64,000 nt of DNA. Origin: Bacillus gaemokensis. Its GTDB lineage: Bacteria > Bacillota > Bacilli > Bacillales > Bacillaceae_G. Of the stretch, positions 44,568 to 62,369 are shown piece by piece. The stretch lies in assembly GCF_001590835.1 (NCBI RefSeq), contig NZ_LTAQ01000009.1, positions 21,179 through 85,178 of the forward strand. The letters are read 5' to 3'. Each line of letters begins with the position of its first letter. Position 1 is the first letter of the stretch. The notes beneath the pieces were generated by a model. That model searched no databases. It had not been told where the DNA came from and saw only the letters and a list, made by a program, of their open reading frames with translations. The translations under genes and the position numbers were made by a program.

Positions 44568-47291
44568 ATGGTCAAACATAATCCATTTCAATCTCGTGAA
44601 ACATTTGAAGTAGATGGAAAAACGTATCATTATTATCAATTGAAAGCGCTTGAAAACGCAGGGGTTGGCAACGTATCGCAATTGCCGTATTCAATTAAAG
44701 TTTTGCTTGAATCTGTACTTCGTCAAGTTGACGGACGTGTAATTACAGAAGAGCATGTAACGAATTTAGCGAAATGGGGAACGAAGGATGTTCAAGATAT
44801 TGATGTTCCTTTTAAACCATCTCGTGTAATCTTACAAGACTTCACAGGTGTTCCAGCTGTTGTTGATTTGGCTTCACTTCGTAAAGCAATGGCAGATATG
44901 GGCGGGGATCCTGATAAGATTAATCCTGAAATTACTGTAGACCTTGTAATTGATCACTCTGTACAGGTTGATAGAGCGGGTACAGCAGACGCGCTTGAAT
45001 TCAACATGGACTTAGAGTTTAAACGTAATGAAGAACGTTATAAATTTTTAAGCTGGGCACAAAAATCATTCGATAACTATCGTGCAGTTCCGCCAGCAAC
45101 AGGTATTGTTCACCAAGTAAATCTTGAGTATTTAGCACCAGTCGTTCATGCGGTGAAAAATGCTGAAGGTGAATTGGTTGCATATCCAGATTCATTAGTT
45201 GGAACAGACTCTCATACAACAATGATTAATGGTATTGGTGTTCTTGGATGGGGCGTTGGTGGTATTGAAGCTGAAGCAGGGATGCTTGGACAACCTTCAT
45301 ACTTCCCAGTACCAGAAGTAATTGGTGTTAAATTAACTGGTACACTTCCAAGTGGTACAACAGCAACAGACGTTGCATTAAAAGTAACACAAGTGTTACG
45401 TCAAAAAGGTGTAGTTGGTAAATTTGTTGAATTCTTCGGTAACGGCTTGAAAAGTATGCCATTAGCTGATCGTGCAACAATTTCAAATATGGCACCAGAA
45501 TATGGTGCAACTTGTGGATTCTTCCCAATCGACGAGATTTCATTAGACTACTTACGCTTAACAGGAAGAGACGAAGAACAAATTCGTATTGTTGAAGAAT
45601 ACTGTAAAGCAAATGGTTTATTCTATACAGCAGACAGCAAAGATCCAATTTATACAGATCTTGTTGAAATTGATTTAAATACAATTGAATCTAATCTTTC
45701 AGGACCAAAACGTCCACAAGATTTAATTCCACTTTCAAATATGAAAGACGAGTTCCACAAAGCAGTTGTGGCACCAGTTGGAACGCAAGGACTTGGGTTC
45801 AACGAACAAGAATTTGATAAAGAAGTGAAAGTTGCATTAAAAGATCAAGAAGTAACGATGAAGACAGGTGCAATTGCAATTGCAGCGATTACAAGCTGTA
45901 CAAATACATCTAACCCATATGTATTAATTGGTGCGGGTTTAGTTGCGAAAAAAGCAATTGAAAAAGGACTTAAAGTACCTGGCTATGTAAAAACATCATT
46001 AGCACCAGGATCTAAAGTTGTTACAGAGTACTTAGATAAATCAGGTTTAACAACATATCTAGATCAATTAGGATTCCAAACAGTTGGTTACGGCTGCACA
46101 ACGTGTATTGGTAATTCTGGTCCATTAGCACCAGAATTAGAGGAAGCAATCGCAGCGAACGATTTATTAGTAACATCTGTTTTATCAGGTAACCGTAACT
46201 TTGAAGGGCGTATCCATCCACTTGTAAAAGCAAACTATTTAGCATCTCCACCACTTGTTGTGGCATATGCACTTGCTGGTACAGTTGATATCGATTTGAA
46301 AAATGATGCAATTGGTAAAGATGCAAACGGTAACCCAATTTACTTTAATGACATTTGGCCATCAGCGAAAGAAATCGAAGAAGTGGTGCAAAGTGTCGTA
46401 ACATCTGAGTTGTTCAAAAAAGAATATGCACAAGTATTTAACAGTAACGAACGTTGGAATGAAATCCAAACTTCAAATGAAGCGTTATATACTTGGGATA
46501 ATGACTCAACATATATTCAAAACCCACCGTTCTTTGAAGGGTTATCAAAAGAACCAGGTGAAGTGGAAACACTTTCAGGTTTACGTGTAGTTGGTAAATT
46601 TGGAGACTCTGTAACAACAGACCACATTTCACCAGCAGGTTCAATCGGTAAACATACACCAGCAGGTCGCTATTTATTAGAAAATGGCGTACAGCCAGTT
46701 GACTTTAACTCTTATGGTTCTCGTCGTGGTAACCATGAAGTTATGATGCGTGGTACATTTGCAAACATTCGTATTAAAAACCAAATTGCACCAGGAACAG
46801 AAGGCGGATATACAACTTACTGGCCAACTGGTGAAGTAACATCTATCTATGATGCTGCAATGAAATATAAAGAAGACGGCACAGGACTTCTTGTAGTTGC
46901 TGGTAAAGATTACGGTATGGGAAGCTCACGTGACTGGGCTGCGAAAGGTACAAACCTGCTAGGCATTAAAGCAGTTATCGCAGAAAGTTTCGAGCGTATT
47001 CACCGCAGTAACCTTGTATTAATGGGCGTATTACCATTGCAATTTAAAGATGGTGAAAGTGTCGAAACATTAGGTCTTGTTGGTAACGAATCATTTGAAA
47101 TTCAAATTGATAAAACAGTTAGACCTCGTGATCTTGTAAAAGTAGTTGCAATTGACCCAGAAGGAAATGAAAAACAATTTGAAGTTGTAGCGCGTTTCGA
47201 TAGTGAAGTTGAAATCGACTACTATCGTCATGGTGGTATCCTGCAAATGGTTCTTCGTGAGAAAATTGAAGAGTCTAAGGTGTCAAACTAA
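44568..47291 (+). CDS. citB: Aconitate hydratase
   Basis: This 907-residue TCA-cycle enzyme (AcnA/IRP1 type) interconverts citrate and isocitrate. The three 4Fe-4S cysteines are in [10 protein letters not shown] and [12 protein letters not shown]. The C-terminal swivel domain has [26 protein letters not shown] precedes ATG 44568. In B. subtilis yneN follows directly; here 12.7 kb of other DNA intervenes. The apo-form is an RNA-binding regulator in Bacillus. Confidence 0.98.
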
Positions 47292-48008
47292 GGTTATAGG
47301 TGAATCATCTTTTGAGCTATGTGTTTATAACAGTTATGAATGATAACACAACATATATGTATATGTTTGCTCTTTATTGTGGTGATATGTAAGCAATAAT
47401 AATTTAGAGTGGGAAATCAGAAAACTTCTAATTGTGATAGTTCCTATATTCCGTCAGCGCCCTTTTGATCTATACTATATATCTTTTCTGATCCACTCAT
47501 CTCATTTATGATTGGAATTTTGGGGAAATATAGTTAAACGAATTGGGTCAAAATTAAAATATTTCTATAGCAAAGATACTCAAGACATGATTGCTATATT
47601 TTATCTGTAGTACTTAAATCACTTATCTTGAAAGAGGATGTTTACTATGAAAACTGATAATGAACATTGAATTAATATTGTAAATAACTGTAGAAGATAA
47701 AAGACAGGGTGACTCCAAAAAATCCTTTTTTAACGATTTTTTAGATCACCCTTTTGTGTAATTAAACCTCGAGAAGAAAATAGGTTCCATTTGAATCAGA
47801 CTCCATTGTTTGGCCTTATCCTTAGGTTGGTTGAGAAAACTTCAAAATATATCCACTACTTATACTGGGTTAATTGTACTAATTATTTCAATATTCAACA
47901 TGAATAAATATATATAGAATCGAATTGTATAGAATTTTTTATTTATTACCATATAAAGTTTTTTTGTGATTTATTCTTAAAAACACTAAAACAAAGAGGT
48001 GAAAAATA
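47292..48008. other. 717-bp gap between aconitase and the NRPS/PKS genes
   Basis: No gene is seen. A short frame with an AAAGAGG site (ATG 47638 or 47647, ending MKTDNEH at 47670) precedes a terminator at 47706-47755. From there to 48008 the sequence is A+T-rich and must carry the promoter of the assembly-line genes. The ribosome binding site AAAGAGGTG lies just before ATG 48009. The left boundary of the presumed island falls in this gap. Confidence 0.5.
47706..47755 (+). terminator. Terminator upstream of the NRPS/PKS genes
   Basis: AGGGTGA..AAAAAATC pairs with GATTTTTT..TCACCCT, followed by TTTTG. It isolates the cluster from aconitase transcription, or terminates a short leader. Confidence 0.75.
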
Positions 48009-51000
48009 ATGAATCAAGTAACGCGGAAGCTATACCCTCTTACCAATGCTCAAAAAAGGGTCTGGTTTATAGAAAGAATGTATCAGGAGTCGGGTCTCAT
48101 GAATTTGGCGGGGTCTGTGAGATTTTCCACAAATATATGCCCGAATCTACTCAGAAAAGCAATTCACCAATTTATTCAGGAAAATGAATCCATTGAACTT
48201 CAGGTCATACAAGAGTCACAAAACGATGAGGGATTCTCTCAACAATTAAAAGCGGACAAACAACCGTATGATATTCTTTTATTGGATTTCAGCACTTTTT
48301 CAGATCCGGAAAATATGGCGGAAGCTTGGATTGAAACGACCACGAAAGCACCTTTTAAGATGGATCGGAGTCCATTGTTTTTATTCGCTCTCTTACAGAT
48401 TTCCGAAAGTGAGACTTGGCTATATTTAAAAACGCATCATATCATTTCTGACGGAGTAAGTCTCTATAATGCATGTAATGAAATTGCAGATATCTATTTA
48501 CATTTTCAAAGAGGAAGGCCACGAGAAATTAGTAAAAAACCCTCTTATTTGAACACGATAGAAAAAGAAAACAAGTATTTTCAATCCAAACGATATTTAA
48601 AAGATAAACAATTTTGGCAGGCAAACTTTGAAACTTTACCTGATTTGCTCTATGTGAAAAAAGGTGGGATGCCACAAGACAGTCTAGCCAGTTCGCGTTA
48701 TGAAATCAGTCTCGATAAGGACCTCAGGGAACGCATTGATCAGTTTTGCAATGAGTTAGAAATTAGTCCGAGTACCTTTTTCACTACATGTTTATATACA
48801 TACCTTTATCGGATAACAGGAAAGAAGGATATCACCCTTGGCCAAATCACTCGGAACCGGACAGGTATTCAAGAAAAAAGCACATTCGGTATGTTTGTTA
48901 ATATGCTTCCATTTCGGTATAAAATAAACCCGTTACACTCATTTGAAAACGTATGCCGGAACATTTCAAAAAAACAACATCAGTTGCTTCGACATCAAAA
49001 ATATCCCTATAATCATATTTTAAAGGGATTAAGAGAACAACATCAAAATATCTCAAAATTATTTAATATCTCCGTTGAATTTCAGGTATTGGATTTTCAA
49101 AAACATGAGGATCTTCCTTATGTTATAAAGACCCACCCCTGCGGTTCATTAGATCATGAAATGGTGGTACACATCAAAGACCGCAGTGATTTGGGAACCT
49201 ACCGGCTTGAATTCGAATACCAGTCGTTGCTTTTTAAGGAAGAAGAAATAAAGTCCTGGAGCAATCGATACATGGAACTATTAAAAGATGCTTTGCTAAA
49301 TCCGGTGAAAAAAGTTACTGATCTGAACATATTGTCCGAATCTGAAGCTAAACAAATACTATTCGATTGGAATCAAACGGAACGAGAATACCGACTCGAT
49401 CAGACTTTTATTGACCTATTTAATAAACAAGTGAAAATTACACCTGACTCGATCGCTCTCGAATTTAATGGAGAGAACTTAACATACTTAGAGTTAGATG
49501 AACGGACGAGTAGATTGGCGAAAATATTGAGAAACAAAAAGGTTAAATCAGAAGACGTTGTCGCGATTATGTTGCCAAGAGGAATTGATTTAATTGTCAG
49601 CATGATAGGGATACAAAAAGCAGGAGGAGCTTATTTAGCGATAGATCCAGATTATCCAATTAATCGAATTTCTTATATGTTGATAGACTCACAATCTTGC
49701 TCCCTCTTGACCACAGATGAATTCAAAGAAAAACTGTCTGATTTCAACGAGAATATTATAGACATCAAACAACTCCATTTGGAGGATATACCATCTTATC
49801 CATGTGAAACAACTGATTGGCCCACCCCTGACTGCGCTGACCTTGCTTATCTGATTTACACATCAGGCTCAACTGGGAACCCTAAAGGAGTCATGGTTGA
49901 ACATCGTGGCTTAAGCAATCTAATCTATAATACTCTCGAAGAAATAGGTTTAACTGAAAGCTCAAGGGTGTTGCAGTTCGCATCATGCAGTTTTGATACT
50001 TCGGTGTTTGAGATTTTCCCTCTCCTTTGCAGTGGCGGTACACTTATTCTAGAGAACCGGGAATCCTTGCTACCTGGAAAGCCTTTAGCTGATGTTTTGA
50101 GGAAAAAGAAAATTAACATGGTAACCCTCACTCCTTCTGTTCTTATGAAGTTATCTTCATATGGGGAAGGTGAACTAAACAAGAAAATGCCTCATTTGAA
50201 GATAATAAAATCGGCGGGAGAAGCATGTCCATTCGAAGTTGCTGATTATTGGAGTAAATATTGTCGATTTATTAATGGTTATGGTCCCGCTGAATCAACC
50301 GTTTGGGCAACGACAGGGGATTATGCTGGAGCGATCCATCCTGATATCGGGCGTCCATTAAAAAATATTACCATTTACATTTTGGATGAAAACCAAAATG
50401 TGGTTCCTCCTGGTGTTGTAGGTGAAATCTACATTGGAGGTACCAGTCTAGCTAGAGGATATTTGAACCGTCCTGAATTAACTGCAGAAAAATATATCCA
50501 AGTTGATTTTCAGAGGGCTGATTTAGAAAAGCGACGTCTTTATAAAACGGGTGATCTGGCTCGCTTTCTTCCAGATGGAAAAATCGAATATCTTGGCCGA
50601 AATGATAGTCAAATTAAAATTCGTGGACAACGGGTGGAGCTAAGTGAAATAGAAAATGTATTAGAACAGCATTCACTAATAAAGCAGGCTGTCGCTGTAG
50701 TAAAAGATGATGCGAAAAGCATCCAAAAGATTGTGGTCTTTATTCTTCTCAGATCTTCCGCAAAAGAAACCAGTATATTGGAATTACGAACCTATCTACA
50801 GGACCGACTACCTTTATTCATGATCCCTAGTCAATTTAAGATTATGAAAGAACTACCCTTATCGCCTAATGGAAAAGTCGATCGATTAAAGTTGAAAGAT
50901 GAAATGATTTATATGGAAGATACCAATGTCGAGTACAAGATGCCTATTAGTCAACTCGAGAAAACTCTGTCTAAGATCTGGGCAGAAGCTCTGGGATTGA

Positions 51001-51278
51001 AACAAGTGGGAGTTGAAGAAAACTTCTTTGACTTAGGTGGCGACTCGTTTAGCCTTCTATGGGTCTGCCAAAAAGCTGAAGAAGAACTGGATAATGCTTT
51101 CACCGTAATTGATATGTTCCGCTATCCTACCATTCGTAGTTTTGTGAATTATATAAGGATGGATAAAGTCAAAGAAGAAAAAAGAATAATGTTAGTTCAC
51201 CAGGAAGAGGCATATCTTCGCCAAAAACAGAGAAACCGGCAAAAAAGTTTAAGAAGGCAATGGAGGGATGGGAAGTGA
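48009..51278 (+). CDS. Nonribosomal peptide synthetase, C-A-PCP module
   Basis: The product has 1089 residues. The condensation domain (about 8-440) has the intact catalytic HHIISDG at His143-His144. The adenylation domain (about 460-960) has LIYTSGSTGNPKGVM, NGYGPAEST, YKTGDLARFLPDG and the invariant lysine in SPNGKVDR. The carrier domain has its phosphopantetheine serine at 1013 (DLGGDSFSL). It has no loading module, so its C domain may acylate the first amino acid with an acyl group. Specificity residues read tentatively D-T-F-T-K-A-G-V-W-K and match no code I know. The very basic tail (KQRNRQKSLRRQW) could dock to the next protein. Overlaps the PKS gene by 4 nt (GTGA). Confidence 0.95.
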   Translation: MNQVTRKLYPLTNAQKRVWFIERMYQESGLMNLAGSVRFSTNICPNLLRKAIHQFIQENESIELQVIQESQNDEGFSQQLKADKQPYDILLLDFSTFSDPENMAEAWIETTTKAPFKMDRSPLFLFALLQISESETWLYLKTHHIISDGVSLYNACNEIADIYLHFQRGRPREISKKPSYLNTIEKENKYFQSKRYLKDKQFWQANFETLPDLLYVKKGGMPQDSLASSRYEISLDKDLRERIDQFCNELEISPSTFFTTCLYTYLYRITGKKDITLGQITRNRTGIQEKSTFGMFVNMLPFRYKINPLHSFENVCRNISKKQHQLLRHQKYPYNHILKGLREQHQNISKLFNISVEFQVLDFQKHEDLPYVIKTHPCGSLDHEMVVHIKDRSDLGTYRLEFEYQSLLFKEEEIKSWSNRYMELLKDALLNPVKKVTDLNILSESEAKQILFDWNQTEREYRLDQTFIDLFNKQVKITPDSIALEFNGENLTYLELDERTSRLAKILRNKKVKSEDVVAIMLPRGIDLIVSMIGIQKAGGAYLAIDPDYPINRISYMLIDSQSCSLLTTDEFKEKLSDFNENIIDIKQLHLEDIPSYPCETTDWPTPDCADLAYLIYTSGSTGNPKGVMVEHRGLSNLIYNTLEEIGLTESSRVLQFASCSFDTSVFEIFPLLCSGGTLILENRESLLPGKPLADVLRKKKINMVTLTPSVLMKLSSYGEGELNKKMPHLKIIKSAGEACPFEVADYWSKYCRFINGYGPAESTVWATTGDYAGAIHPDIGRPLKNITIYILDENQNVVPPGVVGEIYIGGTSLARGYLNRPELTAEKYIQVDFQRADLEKRRLYKTGDLARFLPDGKIEYLGRNDSQIKIRGQRVELSEIENVLEQHSLIKQAVAVVKDDAKSIQKIVVFILLRSSAKETSILELRTYLQDRLPLFMIPSQFKIMKELPLSPNGKVDRLKLKDEMIYMEDTNVEYKMPISQLEKTLSKIWAEALGLKQVGVEENFFDLGGDSFSLLWVCQKAEEELDNAFTVIDMFRYPTIRSFVNYIRMDKVKEEKRIMLVHQEEAYLRQKQRNRQKSLRRQWRDGK

Positions 51279-54145
51279 AAACAGGTAGGGAAGAACAAAA
51301 TAGTGAAGAGATACAGGGGATAGCAATTATAAGTATGGCAGGGCGTTTTCCAGGAGCAAATAATATCCAAAAATTTTGGGATAACCTTCAAAAAGGAGAG
51401 GAATCTATTACTTTTTTTGAAGAGTCTAGTAGCCACAGAAACGCTGCTGGAGTTATAGAAGGAGCAGATGCTTTTGATGCAAACTTTTTTGATATGTCCC
51501 CACGGGAAGCAGAATATACGGATCCGCAACATCGTTTGTTTTTAGAATGTGCGTATGAGGCGCTGGAAATAGCAGGTTACATCAAGCCTGATCCTGATTA
51601 CCGAATTGGCGTATACGCAGGTAGCGGTCAATCAGGTTACCTTTTAAACGTCTTAAGCCAAAAAGAGCTGGTTGACAGTATTGGAGATTATCAATTATCA
51701 ATTGGAAATCTACCAGATTTTCTGACCACACGTGTTTCTTATAAATGCAATTTAAACGGTCCAAGCATGGCTATACAGACGGCTTGTTCTAGCTCCCTTG
51801 TAGCAGTGCATGCGGCGGTTCAAGCTTTGCTTACTTATGAATGTGACATGGCATTAGCAGGTGGTGTTTCAGTCAAAGCTGATCAGACTGCAGGGCTTAC
51901 GTATCAGGAGGGGGGGGTTTTATCTGAAGATGGTCATTGTAAGGCTTTTGATGCCGATGCCAAGGGAACGGTTCTTGGAAATGGTGTGGGTGTAGTTTTC
52001 CTTAAACGGGTGGAAGATGCCATAGAAGACGGTGATCAGATTCTTGCTGTAATACGAGGAACGGCTATTAACAATGACGGCTCACAAAAAATAGGCTACA
52101 CGGCTCCCAGTGTTATCCGGCAGGCAGAAGTAATTAAAGAGGCTCTTTCTATAGCAAATATTGATCCAGAAACGATCACCTACGTAGAAGCTCACGGTAC
52201 AGGTACAGCTTTGGGAGATCCTGTTGAGGTAGCGGCATTAACAGAGGCGTACGGTCATTATACCTCCAAAAAATCCTATTGTGCTTTAGGGAGTGTAAAG
52301 ACTAATATAGGTCACCTCGACAGTGCAGCTGGAATAGTGGGGTTAATCAAGGTCGTCCTTTCTATGCAGAATAAAAAAATCCCAGCTACGTTGCATTTTA
52401 GAAAGCCAAATCCCAAAATTGATTTTGATAACAGTCCTTTTTACGTGAATACACAAAGTCAGAGTTGGGATACGGATGGTCACCCTAGACGAGCAGGAAT
52501 AAGTTCTTTTGGAATGGGAGGAACCAACGCGCACATTATCTTAGAAGAATATATTGACAGAGATGAAGCATCTAACACGTCCGAAACAGAGAGAAAATTG
52601 CTTTTTTTATCTGCCAAAACACCGACAGCCCTTCAAAATATGGTGAATAGTTTTATTCATTATCTACAACAAGATCCACAAACAAAATTATCTGATATAG
52701 CTTATACGCTTTCGGTTGGACGAGAGGAATTTGAATATCGTCTGGCAGCTTTGGCTTATGACCGTGAGAGTGCGATAAAGACCTTAAAGGAAAACGCAGA
52801 AAAATGGTCAGGATCGCAAGTTATCTTGAAAGATACTCATCAGAGCTATTCGCGCTCAGTCGTCTTTATGTTTCCCGCACATCAATCAGTTCAAGTGAAC
52901 ATGGGGGAGGAATTGTATAGGAATCATCATGTTTTCCGAGAACGGATGGATCAATGTTCAGAACTATTAAAACCCCTTCTTTTGGTAGATATACGAGATA
53001 TTCTTTATCCTTCTAAAGAAAAAAGGGAAAAAGCTGCTATTAAATTGACACAAATGGTGTACGTAGCATCGATTCTATTCGCAGTTGAATATGCGCTTGC
53101 CCACCAATGGAGAGAATGGGGCGTTAGGCAGGAGGTCATGGTTGGTCACGGCGTCGGCGAATATGTTGCAGCTTGTTTGGCGGGAGTGATGACCGTAGAA
53201 GAGGCACTGAAAGTGATAACGGTGTGGGCTAGTTTGATTCAGGAAGAATCTACAGAGCTTTGCGTTGATTCTCCAGCGATAGAGGTGATGGTCGAACGAT
53301 TAAAAAACGTTATAGATAGTATTCAGCTGAAAGAACCGAAAATTTCTTATATCTCTGGGCTTACAGGGAGATGGATTACGAATGAACAGGCCACAGATCC
53401 TTCTTATTGGCTGGAGTGCCTTATTGGGCAATCACGTGTAGGGGATGGTACGTTGGAACTATTAAAAGCGGATTATACCGCTTTTCTAGAAATGGGAAAC
53501 GGTGATTCGCTAATTCCTCTTATTCAACAACAAAGCAAAGAGAATAGTAAGGGAATAATGGCTTTAAGTGCTCTGCCCAAAGAGGGAGATGACAGTTCTT
53601 CTTTTGAACAGTCTCTTCATATCTTAGGTGAATTATGGTGTTTAGGGATTCATGTCGATCGAACAGCATTATATAAAGTGGGAACATTTCGTAGAGTACC
53701 TTTACCGACTTATCCTTTTGAGAGAAAAAAATACTTTATTGAAAGGAACCAAAGCATCGGCCGATTTTTAGAGATACAAAAGAGAAGTGAGAGGAAGAAT
53801 CCTCATGAGGATTCCTTAGAAAGAGAACTGACGCATATGGAAGATCCGAAAAATGAAGTCGAGGAAAAAATCCAGATGATTTGGGAAAACTTATTAGGTG
53901 TTCAAGTGCTCGGTAAAAATGAAAACTTTTTTGATTTGGGTGGAGATTCGTTGCTCGCGATTCAGCTTGTGACACGTTTAAGAGAGAATTTTGATCCTGA
54001 TATTTCAATGGATATTATTTTTAATTTTCCAACTATAGGTGAGTTAACTATTGAAATCGAGGGTAATCATATCGATCAGGAAGATCTCAACGAGATTGAG
54101 CTATTGCTAAAAGAAATCGAAAATTTAACAGAGAAAAGTCAATAA
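51275..54145 (+). CDS. Type I polyketide synthase, KS-AT-ACP, with catalytically dead AT
   Basis: The product has 956 residues from GTG 51275 (GGAGGG upstream; ATG 51260 is the alternative). The ketosynthase (about 15-430) is complete: TACSSS Cys171, EAHGTGT and KTNIGHLDSAAG. The acyltransferase region (about 520-780) is short and degenerate: the entry motif reads FMFPAHQSVQ instead of FPGQGSQ, and the nucleophile motif GHSxGE reads GHGVGE, with Gly626 for Ser. The ACP serine is at 892 (DLGGDSLLAI). There is no KR, DH or ER. The acidic helical tail resembles a docking segment. It would add one unreduced ketide, loaded in trans. Confidence 0.93.
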   Translation: MKTGREEQNSEEIQGIAIISMAGRFPGANNIQKFWDNLQKGEESITFFEESSSHRNAAGVIEGADAFDANFFDMSPREAEYTDPQHRLFLECAYEALEIAGYIKPDPDYRIGVYAGSGQSGYLLNVLSQKELVDSIGDYQLSIGNLPDFLTTRVSYKCNLNGPSMAIQTACSSSLVAVHAAVQALLTYECDMALAGGVSVKADQTAGLTYQEGGVLSEDGHCKAFDADAKGTVLGNGVGVVFLKRVEDAIEDGDQILAVIRGTAINNDGSQKIGYTAPSVIRQAEVIKEALSIANIDPETITYVEAHGTGTALGDPVEVAALTEAYGHYTSKKSYCALGSVKTNIGHLDSAAGIVGLIKVVLSMQNKKIPATLHFRKPNPKIDFDNSPFYVNTQSQSWDTDGHPRRAGISSFGMGGTNAHIILEEYIDRDEASNTSETERKLLFLSAKTPTALQNMVNSFIHYLQQDPQTKLSDIAYTLSVGREEFEYRLAALAYDRESAIKTLKENAEKWSGSQVILKDTHQSYSRSVVFMFPAHQSVQVNMGEELYRNHHVFRERMDQCSELLKPLLLVDIRDILYPSKEKREKAAIKLTQMVYVASILFAVEYALAHQWREWGVRQEVMVGHGVGEYVAACLAGVMTVEEALKVITVWASLIQEESTELCVDSPAIEVMVERLKNVIDSIQLKEPKISYISGLTGRWITNEQATDPSYWLECLIGQSRVGDGTLELLKADYTAFLEMGNGDSLIPLIQQQSKENSKGIMALSALPKEGDDSSSFEQSLHILGELWCLGIHVDRTALYKVGTFRRVPLPTYPFERKKYFIERNQSIGRFLEIQKRSERKNPHEDSLERELTHMEDPKNEVEEKIQMIWENLLGVQVLGKNENFFDLGGDSLLAIQLVTRLRENFDPDISMDIIFNFPTIGELTIEIEGNHIDQEDLNEIELLLKEIENLTEKSQ

Positions 54146-54170
54146 ACATAAAAATGAGGGGGAGAACAAA

Positions 54171-55424
54171 TTGAACAAAATAGTTGAACGTATAGCTGCA
54201 CTCTCTCCTAAACAACGTGAGTTGTTAGAGAAACAGTTGAAAGAGAAAGGGTTAGATAATCCTTTTTCTTTCGACTCTGCAAGAAAAAATGAAAAAAAAT
54301 CATTTGGGGAAAATCAGATTACACCTAAGCGTAATCTTGTAAAAGGAGCTGAATTCAGTCTTTTCTTTTTTTCGGGAGACGGCTCTACGACCAAAGAAAA
54401 CAAATATGAATTTCTCCTTAAGAGTGCCTCCTTTGCGGATAAAAACGGTTTTGCGGCAGTCTGGACCCCAGAACGGCACTTTGAAGAATTTGGTGGATTG
54501 TATCCTAATCCCTCGGTATTAAGTGCTGCTTTGGCAACCGTCACGGAGAAAATCGAGTTGCGTGCAGGGAGTGTCGTTTTGCCGCTGCATCACCCTATCC
54601 GTTTCACGGAAGAATGGTCTGTAGTCGATAACCTTTCAAATGGGCGTGTATCCGTCGCGTTTGCTTCTGGGTGGCACCCAATAGACTTTTTAGTGGCTCC
54701 AGTTCAGTCCTCTTGTTACTACTTAGAACGAAAAGATGAAATGTTCAAATCTATTGAACAGGTACAAAAGCTCTGGCAAGGGGAGAAGGTACCATACTTA
54801 GATGCGACAGGGAAGACTTATAGCATTCAAACATTGCCACGTCCCCTACAAAAGCAGCTTAACGTTTGGATAGCTACCAATGGAAGTCCAGAAACTTTTC
54901 AGAATGCTGCAAAAATAGGGGCGAATATTCTTACTGGTGTAACTCCAGGGGGAATAGAGGAGTTAGAGGAGAAAATTGAGATGTACCGGAAGGCATTGAC
55001 CGACTACGGTTATGAAGCTGAATCGAGAAAAGTTGCAGTTATGCTTCATACCTGTTTAGGAACGGATAATATAGTCATTAAAGAGAAGGTAAAGAAGCCA
55101 TTAAAAGAATATCTTAAGACGTTTATGAAACAACATAAAAATATTCATACAGATTACGAGAAATTATCACCAGAGGATTTTGAAGTGATTGTTTCTAGAG
55201 CTTTCGAAGTGTATTTTCAAGAATCGGCTCTACTTGGGACGCAGGATAAATGTGCCGCACTAGTTGAGAAGCTTATTGGAATCGGGGTCGACGAGATTGC
55301 TTGTTTAATAGATTTCGGGGTCGACTTTGATACGGTAATGGATAGTTTACACATGTTAACAGAGTTGAAAAATCAATTTACTGAAAGGATTGAGACGAAT
55401 GAAAAATCTGACAGAGAGAATTAA
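54171..55424 (+). CDS. Luciferase-like flavin monooxygenase of PKS/NRPS type
   Basis: The 417-residue (beta/alpha)8 LLM protein has SLFFFSGDG, WTPERHFEEFGGLYPNPSVL, LPLHHPIRFTEEW and SGWHPIDFL, the pattern of the MupA/Atu3671-type LLM subfamily found in natural-product gene clusters. These use FMNH2 and O2. It starts at TTG 54171 behind GAGGGGGAG and overlaps the next NRPS by 26 nt. Residues 1-29 (VERIAALSPKQRELLEKQLK) mirror the N-terminus of that NRPS, suggesting a common docking element and oxidation of a carrier-bound intermediate. The exact oxidation is unknown. Confidence 0.9.
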   Translation: MNKIVERIAALSPKQRELLEKQLKEKGLDNPFSFDSARKNEKKSFGENQITPKRNLVKGAEFSLFFFSGDGSTTKENKYEFLLKSASFADKNGFAAVWTPERHFEEFGGLYPNPSVLSAALATVTEKIELRAGSVVLPLHHPIRFTEEWSVVDNLSNGRVSVAFASGWHPIDFLVAPVQSSCYYLERKDEMFKSIEQVQKLWQGEKVPYLDATGKTYSIQTLPRPLQKQLNVWIATNGSPETFQNAAKIGANILTGVTPGGIEELEEKIEMYRKALTDYGYEAESRKVAVMLHTCLGTDNIVIKEKVKKPLKEYLKTFMKQHKNIHTDYEKLSPEDFEVIVSRAFEVYFQESALLGTQDKCAALVEKLIGIGVDEIACLIDFGVDFDTVMDSLHMLTELKNQFTERIETNEKSDREN

Positions 55425-58400
55425 AGCATTGACTCCCGAACAGAGAGCTTTGTTCGAGAGTCAGTTGAAAGAGAAAAATCTAAGCTCAAAATTAAAAACA
55501 ACTTTAAATCGCAGGGCCATCCAAAGTCGTAATCATACTAATCCAAGCCCGCTTTCTTTTGACCAAGAACGATTGTGGTTTTTTAACAGGATGCATCCTG
55601 AAGTATTCGCTTATAATGTGTATGGTGTCGCAAGGTTTAAAGGTAGACTGGATCATCGTGCTTTGGAACAGAGTATCAACCTGATTATCAGTCGTCATGA
55701 GGCGTGGAGAACTGTTTTTGATCCAAGGGAACCTTTGCAATATGTGCTTCCTAAACTACATATTGAAGTGCCTTCTGTTGACTTAAGTCATATAGCAAGG
55801 TCCTCACAAGAATCAGAAATTCAAAGACTTGTGCAAGAAGAAGTTCAATGCTTATTTGATTTAGAAAAAGGACCGCTGGTACGTTTTAAACTTTTTTATA
55901 CGAGTGATACAGAAGCAATGCTGGTAATGACCGTCCATCATATAGTTATGGACCACATTTCATTTTCCATCTTTTTTGAAGAATTGGTCACTTCGTATAA
56001 GGCTGCTTTGGACGGCGTTCCCACTCAATTGCCCGATCTTCAAGTGCAGTATGCAGATTATACGGAATGGCAGAGAGATTATTTACAAGGTGAAACTAAA
56101 GAGAATTTGCTTAATTTTTGGAAAAATCAGCTAGAAGGTTCCGAATATGTGTTGGATATTACAACCGATTTTCCTCGAAAACCTGCGGTGACTTATAGGG
56201 GAGCACGTTGTTTTACTTATACTTCAAGGAAAGTCTTGGATGATTTAAAGGAAATAGCCAATACGGAAAAAGCTACAACATTCATGATCTTTCTGGCGGC
56301 TTTTAAAGTCCTTCTTTATCGTTATACAGGACAATCCGACATTCTTGTAGGTTCTCCGTTGGCTAACCGCAATAGAATGGAATTGGAAAAAGTAATGGGA
56401 TATTTCTTAACGATGGGTACGTTCCGTTCCAAAATTTCTGGTGATATGACATTTAAGGAGTTGTTAAAAAGTGTCCGTGAAACATCGATAGGAGTTTACA
56501 AAAATCAGGATTTACCAATAGGTCTTCTTCTGGATGAAATCAAGGTACCTGTAGATCCGAGTCGAAACCCTTTATTTCAATCGGTTTTTGTATATGTAGA
56601 CAAACAAGAGGAAAAATTGAAATTGCCAGAACTGGAAATTGATTTCGAATTGATTGATGGGATGACCGCCAAATATGACATAACGATTGGATTTACAGAG
56701 AGTGATAGTGGATTAGAAGGTTTTTTCGAATACTCTCCTGATTTATTTCGTGCAGAGACTATTCAGAACATGAAAGACCATTGGAATAGATTGTTAGAAA
56801 GTATCATCAAGAATCCAAATCAAAAAATATCTGAATTAAAGATGCTATCCGATTTCGAACAGAATCAAATTGTAGTTGAGTGGAATCAAACGGAAAAAAA
56901 ATTGTCACATGATCAGTTGCTCCATCAGTTAGTGGAAAAACAAGCAGAGAGAACCCCTGAGGCGACGGCTGTAAAATTTGGTCAACATTCAATAACTTAC
57001 CGCGAAGTTAATGAACGGGCTAACCAAGTCGCACATTTGATTAATAATGCAGGAGTAAAAAAACAAACTCATATTGGATTAGTGATGGATACTTCCCTTG
57101 AAATGGTTGTTAGTATACTAGGAATTCTTAAAGCCGGATGTGTTTATGTGCCGATTTCTTCTTCATTCCCGGAAGAACGAATTCAATATATCCTGAAAGA
57201 TGCAGGAATTGAGGTAATAATCACCCAGCCAAACTCCCAGGCAGGAAAAGCTGTAACTATCAATCGGAAAATATTTCTTGATCATACTTGGAATTCCATT
57301 TTGAATGAAAGTAAAGCGAACATCCCCGCGGTCTCTTCAGGCAATGATTTGGCTTATATCATGTATACTTCAGGGTCGACCGGTAAACCGAAGGGGGTGG
57401 CCATCGAACATTTGGGTGTTTGTAATGTAATTAATCATTCAATTTCTCTTTTTAATCTTTCAAGGGGAAGTAGAATGCTGCAGTTTGCTTCAATTAATTT
57501 CGATACTTCCATAGTAGAGATATTTTCTGCATTGTCTTCAGGAGCAACTTTATATCTTACGCCTTTTGAAGTACGGGCTGGAGGAATAGATCTTGTCAAT
57601 TTTTTATCTGAAGAGAAAATAACAGCAATGACGCTTACACCAACAGTATTATCGAGCATTCCGGTCGACTTATTACCAAGCTCTATAGTGACAGTGGGAT
57701 CCGGGGGAGAGCCCTGTACTTTGGATCTCAATCAATGGAAAACGGCTAATAGACGGATTATAAATTTTTATGGGCCTACAGAAACTTCTATTCAGGTTCT
57801 GGCAAATGAATTTGAGAGCGATGACAAACCATCATGTATAGGACGTCCAATTGACAATACACAAGTCTATATTCTAGATAATGAGCAGCAAGTGGTTCCT
57901 GTAGGGGTTTGTGGGGAACTTTATATAAGTGGTATAGGTCTAGCCCGTGGGTATTTAAATAACATTCAACAAACAAAGGAAAAGTTTGTGAATAACCCTT
58001 TTAAGCTTGGAGAGTACATGTATAGAACAGGTGATTTTGCCAAATGGTTGCCGAACGGGAAGGTTGAAATTATTGGCAGGAAAGATGATCAGATAAAGAT
58101 AAAGGGAATAAGAATTGAGACAGGTGAAATTGAAGCAGTATTTAACCAATATCCTGATATTCAAGAGACAGTGGTAATGGCTAGAAGTAATACAATGAAT
58201 AATCAATTCCTTTGTGCTTATTATATATCTGATAAGGAACTGGACGATGAAAAACTACGCGCCTTTTCAACAAAAAAACTTCCTGCTTACATGATTCCTG
58301 CATACTTTATTAGGGTTGAGAATTTTCCAACAAATGCAAACGGGAAGTTAGACAAAAACGCATTGCCTGAGCCTGTTATTCAATTCAATCAAAGAAAAGA

Positions 58401-59352
58401 CTTCACCCCTCCGGTTAGTGAAGGCGAAAAAATTATGGTTTCAGTTTGGGAAGAAGTTTTCGGTATAGAAAATATAGGGTTGGAGGATGGATTTTTTGAC
58501 TTAGGAGGCGATTCCATGAAAGCTATTCAAGTAGCCTCTTCTTTATACAAAAAGGGATGGGAATTTGAAATGAAACAGATTTTTTTAAATCCCGTGTTGA
58601 AAGATTTGTGCTTTTATCTTAGACCGGTTCAGGAGGAGAGCGATAATCTAAAGTTAGGGACATTTTTAACTCAAAAAGGAAAAAAGAATGTTTTTTGTTT
58701 TCCTCCTGTGACGGGTTTCGGGGTCGCATACTATCAACTAGCACGTGGACTGGGGGATTATTCCATCTACTCGTTTGATTATATTGAAAATCCTGACAAG
58801 GTAAAGTTAATGGCACAGCAAATACTTAAGTTGCAGCCGGAAGGGCCCTATGTACTCTTGGGATATTCAGCAGGAGGGAAATTATTATTTGAAGTGGCAA
58901 AAGAGCTGGAGCAATCCTTGGGAAGAAAGGTATCTGATCTTATCATGCTGGATGCTTATCGTGTCAAGAAAACTGAGTCAATGACTGAACAAACCCTTGA
59001 AGACAATGTAAATATAGTCGTGGAGAGCCCGACACGGAAATATTTGAAAGGATATATTTTTAGTGATAGGGACAAAGAGAGAATTAGAGATTATATGAAA
59101 TATGTTTTTACATTAGAAAGCAACGGAAAGATTCAGGCCAATATTCATTTAATTCATTCGGCAGAATATCAAAGGAATGAGCATTATGAGTATGAAGAGT
59201 GGGCTTTGTCAACAACCAGTGAAATTAATCATTACCAAGGTTATGGGTCGCATTACACGATATTAAATCCAGAGAATGCCGATGCCAATGCGAAAGTGGT
59301 TAATGAGATTCTAGTCTCTAAAATATTTCCATGCACAAAAGAACTTTCTTAG
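55399..59352 (+). CDS. Nonribosomal peptide synthetase, C-A-PCP-TE termination module
   Basis: The product has 1317 residues. An N-terminal helix (TERIKALTPEQRALFESQLK) precedes the condensation domain (about 50-480), whose motif reads HHIVMDH at His180-His181: the Asp is kept, the usual Gly is His. The adenylation domain (about 510-990) has MYTSGSTGKPKGVA, NFYGPTETS and NANGKLDK. Its specificity residues read tentatively D-T-V-T-G-G-F-I-Q-K. The carrier serine is 1039. A type I thioesterase follows, with GYSAGG (Ser1157), LDAYR and a late GSHYTIL. It releases the product by hydrolysis or cyclisation. ATG 55399 is chosen over TTG 55390. Confidence 0.95.
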   Translation: MKNLTERIKALTPEQRALFESQLKEKNLSSKLKTTLNRRAIQSRNHTNPSPLSFDQERLWFFNRMHPEVFAYNVYGVARFKGRLDHRALEQSINLIISRHEAWRTVFDPREPLQYVLPKLHIEVPSVDLSHIARSSQESEIQRLVQEEVQCLFDLEKGPLVRFKLFYTSDTEAMLVMTVHHIVMDHISFSIFFEELVTSYKAALDGVPTQLPDLQVQYADYTEWQRDYLQGETKENLLNFWKNQLEGSEYVLDITTDFPRKPAVTYRGARCFTYTSRKVLDDLKEIANTEKATTFMIFLAAFKVLLYRYTGQSDILVGSPLANRNRMELEKVMGYFLTMGTFRSKISGDMTFKELLKSVRETSIGVYKNQDLPIGLLLDEIKVPVDPSRNPLFQSVFVYVDKQEEKLKLPELEIDFELIDGMTAKYDITIGFTESDSGLEGFFEYSPDLFRAETIQNMKDHWNRLLESIIKNPNQKISELKMLSDFEQNQIVVEWNQTEKKLSHDQLLHQLVEKQAERTPEATAVKFGQHSITYREVNERANQVAHLINNAGVKKQTHIGLVMDTSLEMVVSILGILKAGCVYVPISSSFPEERIQYILKDAGIEVIITQPNSQAGKAVTINRKIFLDHTWNSILNESKANIPAVSSGNDLAYIMYTSGSTGKPKGVAIEHLGVCNVINHSISLFNLSRGSRMLQFASINFDTSIVEIFSALSSGATLYLTPFEVRAGGIDLVNFLSEEKITAMTLTPTVLSSIPVDLLPSSIVTVGSGGEPCTLDLNQWKTANRRIINFYGPTETSIQVLANEFESDDKPSCIGRPIDNTQVYILDNEQQVVPVGVCGELYISGIGLARGYLNNIQQTKEKFVNNPFKLGEYMYRTGDFAKWLPNGKVEIIGRKDDQIKIKGIRIETGEIEAVFNQYPDIQETVVMARSNTMNNQFLCAYYISDKELDDEKLRAFSTKKLPAYMIPAYFIRVENFPTNANGKLDKNALPEPVIQFNQRKDFTPPVSEGEKIMVSVWEEVFGIENIGLEDGFFDLGGDSMKAIQVASSLYKKGWEFEMKQIFLNPVLKDLCFYLRPVQEESDNLKLGTFLTQKGKKNVFCFPPVTGFGVAYYQLARGLGDYSIYSFDYIENPDKVKLMAQQILKLQPEGPYVLLGYSAGGKLLFEVAKELEQSLGRKVSDLIMLDAYRVKKTESMTEQTLEDNVNIVVESPTRKYLKGYIFSDRDKERIRDYMKYVFTLESNGKIQANIHLIHSAEYQRNEHYEYEEWALSTTSEINHYQGYGSHYTILNPENADANAKVVNEILVSKIFPCTKELS

Positions 59353-59505
59353 GATTACTGTCCAGCATTAATAGAGGTGAACAAGAAAAGGGACAAACGT
59401 AAATTCAATTCACTAATGAAATTAAAGAACATTATACAACGGATAAAAAGGATCGACGGAAAAATTGAGTTGCTGATTTTAAGCTAAAAACGTTCCTAAA
59501 GTCCA

Positions 59506-59541
59506 AAATACCAGAGAGTAAAATGCTTTCTGGTATTTTTT
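59506..59541 (+). terminator. Terminator of the NRPS/PKS cluster
   Basis: AAATACCAGA and TCTGGTATTTTTT form a stem 155 bp after the last gene. The interval 59353-59505 holds no recognisable gene. Confidence 0.85.
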
Positions 59542-59552
59542 ATGGATAACAA

Positions 59553-59828
59553 TTAAGCAATAAGTATTTGAATACGGGCATGCATTACAGGAAAAGGAAA
59601 TTTTCCTACTTTTAAATATAAAGTGGATAGGATAAATATCGTGACTGCAATTGGTTCAATTTTAAAAGCATAAAGAAACTTATCTATTTCATAAATATGC
59701 TCTGTATTTGTAGTTACTTGCTGGGTAAATACAAGATGATCTTTCCAATCTTCTGAAATCATTAAGTAACTGGCAATAATGCTTGTAACAAAAAACGAGA
59801 TTAATAAAAATGGGAAGGTTAATTGCAT
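59553..59828 (-). CDS. Small two-helix membrane protein
   Basis: The 91-residue product has hydrophobic segments at about residues 4-22 and 58-74 and a polar extracytoplasmic loop (ISEDWKDHLVF..., HIYEIDKFL). The layout is reminiscent of DUF4306/YjdJ-like proteins, a weak impression only. It is convergent with the NRPS cluster and divergent from the thioredoxin-like gene. It probably belongs to the flanking chromosome. The function is unknown. Confidence 0.6.
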   Translation of the reverse strand: MQLTFPFLLISFFVTSIIASYLMISEDWKDHLVFTQQVTTNTEHIYEIDKFLYAFKIEPIAVTIFILSTLYLKVGKFPFPVMHARIQILIA

Positions 59829-60055
59829 ATTGCAGACAATGTATAGAGCTTTTTTTCAAAGTATTCATGTCTCCTTTTCACCGTAATATAGTCTCATTAT
59901 ATGATGAAAAGGAAAAAAATTTATATTAGTAACGGACATTCTGTCTATTTGCGAGAAGAATATTTCCAAGCTTGTCTGTATAAGCTAAAATAAGTATAAA
60001 TACTATCGTTATTTTTTAGGGATATATAATGAGATATGTGATAAGGGTGATGTAT

Positions 60056-60634
60056 ATGTGGCGGAAGCTTACCATTGTTGTAGTGTTACTTTGTTTAGCG
60101 GGGTATGCAGTATATGAACAGTTCGGAAAGGATGAAAAACAAGTAGTAAGAGAAGAGTCCGTACAAAGTGAAGCGGCGATGAAAGAAGTCATCGCAAAGA
60201 ATGGAATTGAAGTAGGGAAGGTTGCACCAGATTTCGAGTTATCAAAATTAGATGGTACAAAGGTGAAATTATCAGATTTGAAGGGGAAGAAAGTAATTTT
60301 AAATTTTTGGGCGACGTGGTGCGGTCCTTGTCAGCAGGAAATGCCGGATATGGAAGCTTTTTATAAAAAACATAAAGATGATGTTGAAATCCTTGCTGTA
60401 AATTATACAGTTTCTGAACGAGCGAATGGAGAAGAAAAAGTGAAGAAGTTCGCTGAAGAGAAAGGAATCACTTTCCCCGTTTTACTTGATAAGGATATAA
60501 GTGTTACAACGACATATAAAGTAATTACCATTCCAACTTCTTATTTTGTGGATACAAAAGGTGTGATTCAAGATAAATTTATCGGACCAATGACACAAAA
60601 AGAGATGGAGAAGCGAAGTGCAAAACTAAAATAG
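60056..60634 (+). CDS. yneN: ResA/YneN-type thiol-disulfide oxidoreductase
   Basis: The 192-residue membrane-anchored thioredoxin-fold protein has a signal anchor (WRKLTIVVVLLCLAGYAVY), an AhpC/TSA-type start (KVAPDFELSKLDG), the active site WATWCGPCQQE and the cis-Pro region ITTIPTSYF-like (VITIPTSYF). It acts outside the membrane and could receive electrons from CcdA. ATG 60056 follows AAGGGTG. In B. subtilis yneN follows citB, so this gene marks the right edge of the inserted NRPS/PKS segment. Confidence 0.85.
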   Translation: MWRKLTIVVVLLCLAGYAVYEQFGKDEKQVVREESVQSEAAMKEVIAKNGIEVGKVAPDFELSKLDGTKVKLSDLKGKKVILNFWATWCGPCQQEMPDMEAFYKKHKDDVEILAVNYTVSERANGEEKVKKFAEEKGITFPVLLDKDISVTTTYKVITIPTSYFVDTKGVIQDKFIGPMTQKEMEKRSAKLK

Positions 60635-60641
60635 TACAGAA

Positions 60642-60680
60642 AAGACAGAATTGGTAAAAGACCATTTCTGTTTTTTCTTT
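60642..60680 (+). terminator. Rho-independent terminator
   Basis: GACAGAATTGGT pairs with ACCATTTCTGTTTTTT after yneN. Confidence 0.85.
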
Positions 60681-60883
60681 TTTATCCAATAGCTTGTTCA
60701 TGATATGACGAAAGAAATGTATATGATAGTGAGAGAAGTGAATTATCATTGGATGTATTAAGTGTTTAAAATTTGTTTTTGACAAATATCGACAGCAACG
60801 AAAGCCATCTGAGATTGCAAGGCTATTCTTACAAGTAGTTTGAATAGCCTTAAGGAGTAAAGTACACAGAATAGGGAAAATTC

Positions 60884-61595
60884 TTATTTCCATGATTCTA
60901 TTTTTGGAAACATTCCATTTCTATTTTCATTTAACGTAACTATTTCACCTGCGGCATTATAATAATTAAATGATAAGTTATCAAATTTTTGACTGCAAAT
61001 ACTCATGCTATAATCTTCCAAAAAAAATAATTGAATTTCTGGATTTTTACGAGAATCTCTTGAAGAATTCAGAACAAGATTATCATTTTTCTTTAGGGGT
61101 ACGACGAAAGAGTTTAAAGGAACCGATAATCCTTTTCCTAAGAATTTTACATAGCTTTCGTTAGCTGTCCAAATTCTATAAAATTCATCCTTGAGACAAG
61201 TGTGATCTAAATTTTTAAGGTAGGCTTGTTCAGGTTCTGAAAAAAATGTAGAAAGATTAATAAAATCGAGAGTTTCTAACTTTTCAATATCAACACCTAT
61301 TTCACAGTCACTAATGCCTATCAAAATCCAGTCGCCAGAATGTGAAATGTTAAAAAAATATTCATTGCTTGTTAAATATTTTTTTCCGTATTGATTTTTT
61401 AAAATTTCAATTTTTTTTTAGTATATGAGGTTAATAGTTCCATTAACAAATGATTTGAAAGCAAGGCTCTTTGCTTATCTTCTTTTTTTCTAAAAGCACC
61501 TATTTCTTTTTTTTTAAACTATCAGCGGTTGTATAAAATGTTAGGAAATTTTTGTTAGGAAAATCAGTAATATTCGCTAAGAATAATTCTAACAT
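60884..61595 (-). pseudogene. Sfp-type 4'-phosphopantetheinyl transferase, broken by two A9-tract frameshifts
   Basis: Three minus-strand frames join into one protein of about 235 residues. Bases 61595-61507 give MLELFLANITDFPN..., the middle frame gives EIGAFRKKEDKQRALLSNH..LLTSYTKKK, and the last gives KNQYGKKYLTSNEYFFNISH, GVDIEKLE and RIWTANESYVKFLGKGL. The PPTase motifs (substrate-binding ISHSGDW, metal-binding GVDIE, W-x-x-KES-like) are all there. The frames switch at A9 runs 61507-61515 and 61410-61418; each would be in frame as A10. Enzymes of this family activate carrier domains of NRPS/PKS. It is real decay, slippage or homopolymer miscalls. Confidence 0.85.
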
Positions 61596-62041
61596 TGTAC
61601 ATCTCAACTCCTTTCTAAAACAAAAGATTTACATTAATTTATATAGCTTTACAAATTTTAAGGCTGGATTAATAAAAATAACGTTCTGATCCTAATATGA
61701 TGAGTTTGGGAAATATCGATAAAAAGGAGTTACTTACAATATCTTCATTATAACAAAAAAAGAAAAACAATTTAGAAGTTTAAGAACATATTTCCTTTTA
61801 TATATTCATTATTTAACTAAATCCACACGTGAGAAAACCTTTTTGTTATTTATACTTTTTTTATTTTGAACTTATAATTCGCTCGTTATTTATATGGTGA
61901 TAAGATGTTACCTATGTAAAGTGAATTAATAAATTTAATATAGGGATCTTGTTTACTATTATTTGTTAATTAGTGTGTCCATTAAAATGAAAACAAACTA
62001 ATAAACCTTGGTAATCTCTAACGACATTCATTATTATGTAA

Positions 62042-62080
62042 TATGTTTTATGTTATTGAATACTAGTAACATAAAACATA
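62042..62080. repeat. Perfect 14-bp inverted repeat
   Basis: TATGTTTTATGTTA (62042-62055), 11-nt loop, TAACATAAAACATA (62067-62080). There is no T-run on either side. It is a candidate operator or RNA hairpin. Confidence 0.75.
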
Positions 62081-62369
62081 AATAACGGCAATGGTATTAT
62101 GTGATTTTTCTATGAGTTAATTTCACAATTCGATTGTTTGCATAACGGAATCCACTAATTTTTATAACGGTTGTTTTTTAGAATATTTTTTATGTTTGTC
62201 GATGCTTTTGAGGTGAAACACCATAACTATCAATTAATTTAAAATATATTGAAAATAATTATGTAGAAAAATGTAAAATAGTGTAAGATAATTATAAGAA
62301 GTACTCTTTTAATAGATGGTGTCTATCAAGGAATTAAAATGTGTGGGGATTTCATAAAATTTACAATAT

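What the first reader, a model, noticed from the sequence alone, without database searches (positions are those of the whole stretch)
48009..59352. Compact four-gene NRPS-PKS-LLM-NRPS assembly line of unknown product
Seen: C-A-PCP, KS-(AT)-ACP, a free-standing luciferase-like monooxygenase and C-A-PCP-TE on one strand, with 4-nt and 26-nt overlaps at the two protein junctions that must talk to each other. Established: such modules build acyl-peptide/ketide hybrids. Inference: acyl-aa1-ketide-aa2 with one oxidation, released by the TE. The layout does not match bacillibactin, petrobactin, kurstakin, zwittermicin or cereulide as I know them. There is no loading module, ketoreductase, exporter or regulator in the set.
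Basis: partly seen in the sequence, partly recalled or inferred. Interest (0 to 1): 0.85.

Follow-up and report, generated by a model that had tools for sequence, protein, structure and literature searches.

The report
Compact assembly line with dead acyltransferase
Four bacterial genes form a small assembly line that probably makes a fatty-acid-capped, oxidised peptide-like molecule; its own loading enzyme is dead and it seems to borrow the cell's fatty-acid loader instead, and the oxidising enzyme carries the same kind of docking handle as the next machine in the line.

Summary
The four genes are real and laid out as described: C-A-PCP, KS-AT-ACP, a MupA/PuwE-type flavin monooxygenase (LLM), and C-A-PCP-TE. 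They sit between acnA and a tlpA-like gene that are neighbours in 7 of 9 genomes examined, so they look like an acquired island. New points: (1) The first C domain is a starter type, grouping with the first C domain of a fengycin-like synthetase (100/99), so no loading module is needed. (2) The AT is dead: active-site Ser lost, His motif and about 60 residues deleted; the ketoreductase region is gone too. Cytobacillus purgationiresistens has the same four genes with the same losses. (3) In that draft genome the only other acyltransferase match is FabD; FabD is reported to feed the AT-less barnesin and pseudotetraivprolide lines. (4) Related PKSs beside a free-standing LLM mostly carry a KR without its catalytic Tyr (10 of 12), fitting an LLM that needs a beta-keto substrate, as MupA does. 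(5) LLM and downstream C protein share an N-terminal segment (14 of 14 pairs). Best reading: acyl-aa1-(alpha-hydroxy-beta-keto-C2)-aa2, malonyl from FabD. New variant of a known kind; product unknown.

The parts
48009..51278 (+). NRPS 1: starter C - A - PCP (1089 aa)
   Evidence: starter-C grouping
48027..49361 (+). Starter-type condensation domain, HHIISDG intact
   Evidence: 35.8% to the first C domain of a fengycin-like synthetase, ranked first of 511 plasmid records; tree 100/99; motif
49419..50888 (+). Adenylation domain 1, specificity positions DTFTKAGVW, identical in Cytobacillus; substrate not predicted
   Evidence: positions placed by recalled GrsA numbering; several other domains in the same table gave codes that I recall as standard
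51275..54145 (+). PKS: KS - dead AT remnant - ACP (GTG start gives the 4-nt overlap; in-frame ATG at 51260)
51311..52549 (+). Ketosynthase with TACSSSL, EAHGTGT, NIGHLD intact
52850..53749 (+). AT remnant (AT0): GHSxGE reads GHGVGE, FSGQGSQ reads FPAHQSV, SHA(Y/F)HS motif gone with a 61-residue block
   Evidence: dN/dS about 0.22 against Cytobacillus with dS near saturation
53846..54064 (+). ACP with LGGDSL, followed by an acidic C-terminal segment
54171..55424 (+). Free-standing FMN-dependent LLM, MupA/Atu3671 family (TIGR04020), closest solved structure PuwE (6ket)
54171..54260 (+). N-terminal segment of the LLM (IAALSPKQRELLEKQLKEKGL), same type as at the start of the downstream NRPS
55399..59352 (+). 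NRPS 2: C - A - PCP - TE; ATG 55399 gives the 26-nt overlap
55399..55485 (+). N-terminal segment of NRPS 2 (IKALTPEQRALFESQLKEKNL), like that of the LLM
55540..56874 (+). Condensation domain 2 with HHIVMDH instead of HHxxxDG; belongs to a clade of C domains that follow an LLM
56932..58359 (+). Adenylation domain 2, specificity positions DTVTGGFIQ (Cytobacillus DTAMGGIIY): different residue likely
58675..59319 (+). Thioesterase domain (GYSAGG, GYGSHY)
47292..60028 (.). Island between acnA (44568-47291) and a tlpA-like gene (60029-60634)
   Evidence: a tlpA-like gene (35-47% identical) lies directly behind acnA in 7 of 9 genomes examined

Best explanation
A probably horizontally acquired, lipo-initiating NRPS-PKS line whose PKS module is fed in trans by the housekeeping malonyltransferase FabD. 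Proposed order: (a) the starter C domain puts a fatty acyl group on amino acid 1 (inferred from phylogeny); (b) the KS moves acyl-aa1 onto itself and condenses it with malonyl-ACP (KS residues shown intact; reaction inferred); (c) malonyl is loaded by FabD because the module's AT is catalytically dead (AT loss shown; FabD inferred); (d) the beta-keto group stays because the KR is gone (shown), and the LLM, docked on the ACP by the same kind of N-terminal segment as the next NRPS, hydroxylates the alpha carbon with FMNH2 from a housekeeping reductase (inferred from MupA and PuwE); (e) NRPS 2 takes the LLM's place at the ACP tail, accepts the alpha-hydroxy-beta-keto acyl chain, adds amino acid 2, and the TE releases acyl-aa1-CO-CHOH-CO-aa2 or a ring-closed form of it (inferred).
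For: Domain calls. AT: Ser and His motif absent in the window and in Cytobacillus, present in the other 13 of the 15 PKSs compared; 61 residues missing in the window, 54-61 in Cytobacillus depending on the alignment, and 517-519 residues of KR region missing in both. KS and LLM trees place window+Cytobacillus together (100/100 and 100/99) beside those three, so the AT and KR losses look derived and single. AT0 stays in frame over about 300 residues in both, dN/dS about 0.22. Cytobacillus draft genome: only FabD and AT0 match PF00698, FabD lying in a fapR-plsX-fabD-fabG-acpP-rnc cluster (77, named by eye). FabD as trans-AT is reported for barnesin and pseudotetraivprolide (passages). KR Tyr is Asn in 10 of 12 KR-bearing relatives, fitting the report that MupA hydroxylated only the beta-keto ACP substrate (passages). 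Shared N-terminal segment: 14 of 14 LLM/C pairs score above all 1000 shuffles. Starter C.
Against: The window's own genome is not held, so a dedicated trans-AT elsewhere in it cannot be excluded. The Cytobacillus genome is a draft of untold completeness. AT0 evolves faster than KS (48% and 54% in its halves against 80%; a pair with intact ATs, G319-G341b, has 62% and 56% at KS 73%), and dS is near saturation (74), so the evidence for constraint is soft. G484 and G323 keep the KR Tyr (68). G642 has a KR-less PKS with intact AT and a different gene order (67, 68). Relatives are not independent events. No substrate prediction for either A domain. In the barnesin work, leaving out the added FabD lowered production only slightly, which its authors put down to the E. 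coli homologue (passage, 85). The docking role of the shared segment is inferred from sequence only; the structure model failed (pLDDT 29.8).
Confidence: 0.5

Rival explanations
1. The LLM does not stop at alpha-hydroxylation but performs a Baeyer-Villiger or chain-shortening oxidation of the beta-keto thioester, giving an aminoacyl glycolate ester or a shortened chain.
For: [quoted passage not shown] The beta-keto group is retained.
Against: The closest solved relative is PuwE, assigned to a 2-hydroxy acyl product (passage). MupA gave hydroxylation of the ACP-bound beta-keto thioester (passage).
Confidence: 0.2
2. A dedicated or foreign acyltransferase from another PKS pathway of the same cell, not FabD, loads the ACP, perhaps with an unusual extender unit.
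For: The window genome is not held. Another NRPS begins at 62527 and the rest of its cluster is outside the window.
Against: In Cytobacillus only FabD and AT0 match PF00698. Reading the ORF translations of the window (120 aa and more, up to 48000) and of L001 I saw no FabD-like protein; this was by eye.
Confidence: 0.15
3. The PKS module is decaying and the line makes nothing or skips the ketide step.
For: AT lacks catalytic residues, KR is lost, AT0 diverges fast, and a PPTase gene close by is broken.
Against: All four frames are open in two genera. KS, ACP, LLM, C, A and TE domains are recognisable with their motifs. dN/dS is 0.06 for KS and 0.22 for AT0.
Confidence: 0.1
4. The TE catalyses Dieckmann ring closure, so the product is a 3-hydroxy tetramate-like ring rather than a linear acid.
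For: A beta-ketoacyl-aminoacyl thioester is the classical precursor (recalled; no call).
Against: No test here; TE phylogeny was not done.
Confidence: 0.15

Closest known systems
Cytobacillus purgationiresistens four-gene cluster (L001), uncharacterised as far as I found
   Same: Same four genes in the same order, dead AT, no KR, same first A-domain positions; PKS 64% and LLM 72% identical
   Different: Second A-domain positions differ; a PPTase, a stand-alone thioesterase and an arginine-deiminase-like gene lie upstream
Mupirocin alpha-hydroxylation bimodule (MupA)
   Same: Free-standing LLM of the family after which TIGR04020 is named, acting in trans on a beta-keto ACP substrate (passages)
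   Different: In mupirocin a KR acts afterwards and the next protein brings a KS0 (passages); here no KR, and the next protein is an NRPS C domain
Puwainaphycin PuwE (6ket)
   Same: Closest solved LLM, E 2.1e-99; assigned to 2-hydroxylation of a PKS chain (passage)
   Different: PuwE is fused with PKS, aminotransferase and NRPS (passage); here neither FAAL nor aminotransferase among the four proteins
Barnesin A (brn) and pseudotetraivprolide/detoxin-rimosamide lines
   Same: Small NRPS-PKS hybrids without a working cis-AT, FabD as trans-AT (passages); barnesin also has a starter C
   Different: They have a KR (and a DH in barnesin); no LLM in the passages I saw; PipC is said to have only an AT docking domain, not a near full-length dead AT
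Three unnamed Bacilli genomes G301, G334, G266
   Same: Starter C-A-PCP, PKS, LLM, C-A-PCP-TE in the same order
   Different: Full AT with Ser and His, and a KR region with Tyr to Asn (for G301, for the three)

Membership tests
MupA/Atu3671 LLM family (TIGR04020) | Score above the curated cut-off over the whole domain | tested here: met
   451.9 bits against 244.45, profile 1-341 of 341
Lipo-initiating (starter) C domain | Clusters with first C domains of lipopeptide synthetases; HHxxxDG | tested here: met
   100/99 with the fengycin-like and a P. polymyxa first C domain, 7 of 43 rows; HHIISDG. The fengycin identity rests on the neighbouring genes and is recalled; the synthetase itself is not annotated there
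trans-AT PKS | No working AT in the module | tested here: met
   Ser and His motif lost
trans-AT PKS | Dedicated free-standing AT in or near the cluster | tested here: inconclusive
   Not met in Cytobacillus, where only FabD and AT0 match PF00698; the window's own genome is not held
trans-AT PKS | KS descended from trans-AT KS lineages | tested here: inconclusive
   KS groups with KSs of modules with intact cis-AT (100/99), but no trans-AT KS was in the tree
MupA-type alpha-hydroxylation bimodule | Downstream non-elongating KS0-ACP | tested here: not met
   Next protein is C-A-PCP-TE
Puwainaphycin/minutissamide type | FAAL starter and aminotransferase with LLM | tested here: not met
   Neither among the four proteins
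alpha-Hydroxylation activity of the LLM | Hydroxylates a beta-ketoacyl-ACP | not testable with these tools
   Needs an enzyme assay

The most novel reading that the evidence does not exclude
This is a cis-AT module caught on its way to FabD dependence: the AT has lost its chemistry and lid but is kept as a scaffold. In addition the tailoring LLM has acquired the acceptor NRPS's own docking segment, so that LLM and C domain take turns on one ACP tail and thereby set the order oxidation first, transfer second.
Probability: 0.4. Interest if true: 0.72.

Novelty: new variant of a known kind. Interest (0 to 1): 0.57.

Why it matters
How modular PKSs move from built-in to borrowed acyltransferases is usually seen only as finished states (my general knowledge); a dead, still partly conserved AT in a genome whose only other acyltransferase match is FabD is an intermediate that can be tested. 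The mupirocin bimodule authors write that it remains unclear how correct processing at such junctions is achieved and ask how the components are coordinated (passage); a docking segment shared by LLM and acceptor gives a concrete answer to test. The predicted product, an acylated alpha-hydroxy-beta-keto peptide, did not appear in the listing of one search made for it, which is weak evidence.

Tried and rejected
Plasmid origin: no near match of 48009-59352 or 59353-64000 in PLSDB; 13000-37900 matched 8 plasmid records only, over stretches of 2-6% at under 80% identity. Target-site repeats of the island: the longest direct match between the flanks is 10 bases, no better than shuffles. Structure of the PKS by AlphaFold: pLDDT 29.8 from two sequences, not used. 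Naming the window's species: of 380 scored genomes of the class (18 more not scored) the best acnA was 77% identical, and none of 34 in that genome's family did better; the Bacillus cereus group is my recall, not a test. Substrate prediction from A-domain codes: no code that I recall fits. Puwainaphycin-like clusters reported in B. cereus group strains (passages) could be neither linked to this locus nor excluded. Tupuseleiamide as product of the three long-PKS genomes: considered because it is an acyldipeptide of Bacillus laterosporus (reference line); no evidence.
Full report
What is there. Four open frames on the + strand, 48009-59352, encode C-A-PCP (1089 aa), KS-AT-ACP (961 aa from ATG 51260, 956 from GTG 51275), a 417-aa luciferase-like monooxygenase (LLM) and C-A-PCP-TE. 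The 4-nt and 26-nt overlaps hold if translation starts at GTG 51275 and ATG 55399. The LLM passes the cut-off of TIGR04020, MupA/Atu3671 family, and its closest solved relative is PuwE, 6ket, E 2.1e-99.

Where it sits. acnA (44568-47291) lies before the cluster and a tlpA-like gene (60029-60634) after it. In 7 of 9 genomes examined, a tlpA-like gene (35-47% identical) lies directly behind acnA; in the other 2 none was found in the stretch fetched. Cytobacillus, one of the 7, has its copy of the cluster on another contig. The cluster is therefore best read as an island in a conserved chromosomal neighbourhood. No direct repeats beyond chance mark its ends, and neither the cluster nor its right flank matched any of 72,556 plasmid records at near identity.

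Relatives. A scan of genome contigs from 84,980 species with the AT-ACP part, a search that finds close relatives only, gave 2 loci: Cytobacillus purgationiresistens (L001, 50%), with all four genes in order, and a Bacteroidales PKS-NRPS at 25%. Window and Cytobacillus are 64% identical in the PKS and 72% in the LLM. With the LLM as query, 1 of 193 genomes of the Cytobacillus family (the same one, limit 1e-90), 16 of 398 drawn from its class, 0 of 34 of another family and 1 of 397 drawn from another order (limit 1e-80) had a match (the sets overlap, and the 0 of 34 has no positive control). Of the 16, ten hold free-standing LLMs directly beside a PKS, five hold LLMs only inside NRPS proteins, split into an A domain, and one (G377) has a 361-aa free-standing LLM without the N-terminal segment, which falls on the side of the tree with the A-domain type.

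The AT is dead and shortened. I compared 15 PKSs that belong with a free-standing LLM. The window reads GHGVGE and Cytobacillus GEGTGE where the other 13 read GHS(I/V)GE, and both lack the SHA(Y/F)HS motif that the 13 have. Against G301 the window lacks 61 residues at this place and Cytobacillus 54-61 depending on the alignment; both lack the same 517-519 residues that hold the KR region (also against 8xju for the AT). A KR region is present in 12 of the 15; G642 also lacks it but has an intact AT. The KS and LLM trees put the window and Cytobacillus together (100/100 and 100/99) beside G301/G334/G266, so both losses are best read as one ancestral change. The remnant is still in frame in both genera, at 48% and 54% identity in its two halves against 80% for the KS; a pair with intact ATs (G319-G341b) has 62% and 56% at KS 73%. 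Counted by Nei-Gojobori, dN/dS is 0.06 for the KS and 0.22 for AT0, with dS 1.75-2.2, that is near saturation. So something still constrains the remnant, but less than a working AT.

Who loads the ACP. In the Cytobacillus genome PF00698 matches twice: AT0 itself and one 323-codon frame, which lies in a cluster that reads fapR-plsX-fabD-fabG-acpP-rnc by eye. FabD is the only candidate there, as far as this draft goes. There is precedent: in barnesin (PMC13096860, passages) and pseudotetraivprolide (PMC12828459, passages) FabD is reported as the trans-AT of AT-less NRPS-PKS hybrids. For the window's own genome the same test was not possible.

Start of the chain. Among plasmid records the first C domain ranks a C domain of a fengycin-like synthetase first (35.8%; a Bacillus velezensis record in the same gene context has 37.0% over 71% of the query, two Paenibacillus polymyxa records 30.0%, the other 36 of the 40 listed of 511 records 23-26%). 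It groups with the first of these and with the P. polymyxa first C domain at 100/99 among 43 C domains. That the records hold fengycin genes is recalled from the neighbouring genes, not annotated. This makes acylation of amino acid 1 by the C domain itself likely, so the missing loading module is not a puzzle.

The oxidation. Ten of the 12 KR-bearing relatives have Asn for the KR Tyr and an altered Ser motif; G484 and G323, near-identical to each other, keep both. These counts are not independent events. MupA is reported to hydroxylate only the ACP-bound beta-keto thioester and not the beta-hydroxy one (PMC10953402, passages), so a dead or missing KR is what an LLM of this type would tolerate or favour. 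The C domains after the LLM read HHxxxD(H/R) in 12 of 14, and HHxxxDG in G484 and G323; the eight of them in the tree form one clade.

Docking. By eye each of the 15 free-standing LLMs in the comparison has an N-terminal segment of the form L(S/T)PxQR..LE..LK (LNQEQR in G642), and the downstream protein in the 14 clusters where a C protein follows has one too, L(S/T)(P/D)xQR (G319's ORF as called begins further upstream). For those 14 pairs the local score of LLM against C segment, 45 residues each, exceeded all 1000 shuffles. Gloeocapsa has a free-standing LLM between PKS and NRPS whose match starts at its second codon, without room for such a segment. The simplest reading is that LLM and NRPS 2 dock in turn on the same acidic tail of the ACP. 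This is an inference from sequence; a two-row AlphaFold model of the PKS was useless (pLDDT 29.8).

Product. With A-domain positions DTFTKAGVW and DTVTGGFIQ I cannot name the residues. The first is identical and the second different in Cytobacillus, so the two strains may make congeners that differ in the last residue. Predicted core: fatty acyl-aa1-CO-CH(OH)-CO-aa2, released by the TE as acid or ring.

Known or new. Every single part is known. The combination of a starter-C NRPS, a PKS with a dead near full-length AT and no KR, an LLM with an acceptor-like N-terminal segment, and a C-A-PCP-TE did not turn up in the listings of searches of an open-access library, nor in the passages that I read; no paper was read whole, and MIBiG was not available. 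Puwainaphycin-like clusters reported for B. cereus group strains (PMC9947482 and PMC7643830, passages) may or may not be this one. PuwE's role (PMC4219810, passages) and the alternatives CalD and MndB (PMC8739492, passages) frame the chemistry. I rate it a new variant of a known kind.

Noticed in passing
window 60884-61414, - strand: 4'-Phosphopantetheinyl transferase gene whose N-terminal part is interrupted; C-terminal part 35% like the Cytobacillus PPTase that lies upstream of the homologous cluster.
   Followed up: partly
window 62527-64000, + strand: Start of another NRPS (C domain, HHIIFDG) that runs off the window; long branch, in no well-supported small group of the C-domain tree.
   Followed up: partly
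L041-L043 (G341), L059-L061 (G373), L062-L064 (G352): Large clusters with two KS-AT-KR0-ACP plus LLM cassettes each, and a protein with a weak, split A-like N-terminal match before a C-A-PCP (FAAL-like by eye).
   Followed up: partly
L065-L069, L071, L072: LLM domains inserted inside A domains of NRPSs in seven stretches of unnamed Bacilli genomes; they form one group against the 15 free-standing ones, with free-standing G377 on their side of the tree.
   Followed up: partly
window 55540-56874 and relatives: C domains after LLMs carry HHxxxD(H/R) instead of HHxxxDG in 12 of 14 clusters.
   Followed up: yes
L033:4453-6589 (G301): Methyltransferase and UbiA-family prenyltransferase genes directly behind the four-gene cluster.
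   Followed up: no
window 23412-23939, + strand: ORF that looks like part of a transposon-associated (TnpB-like) protein by eye; not tested.
   Followed up: no
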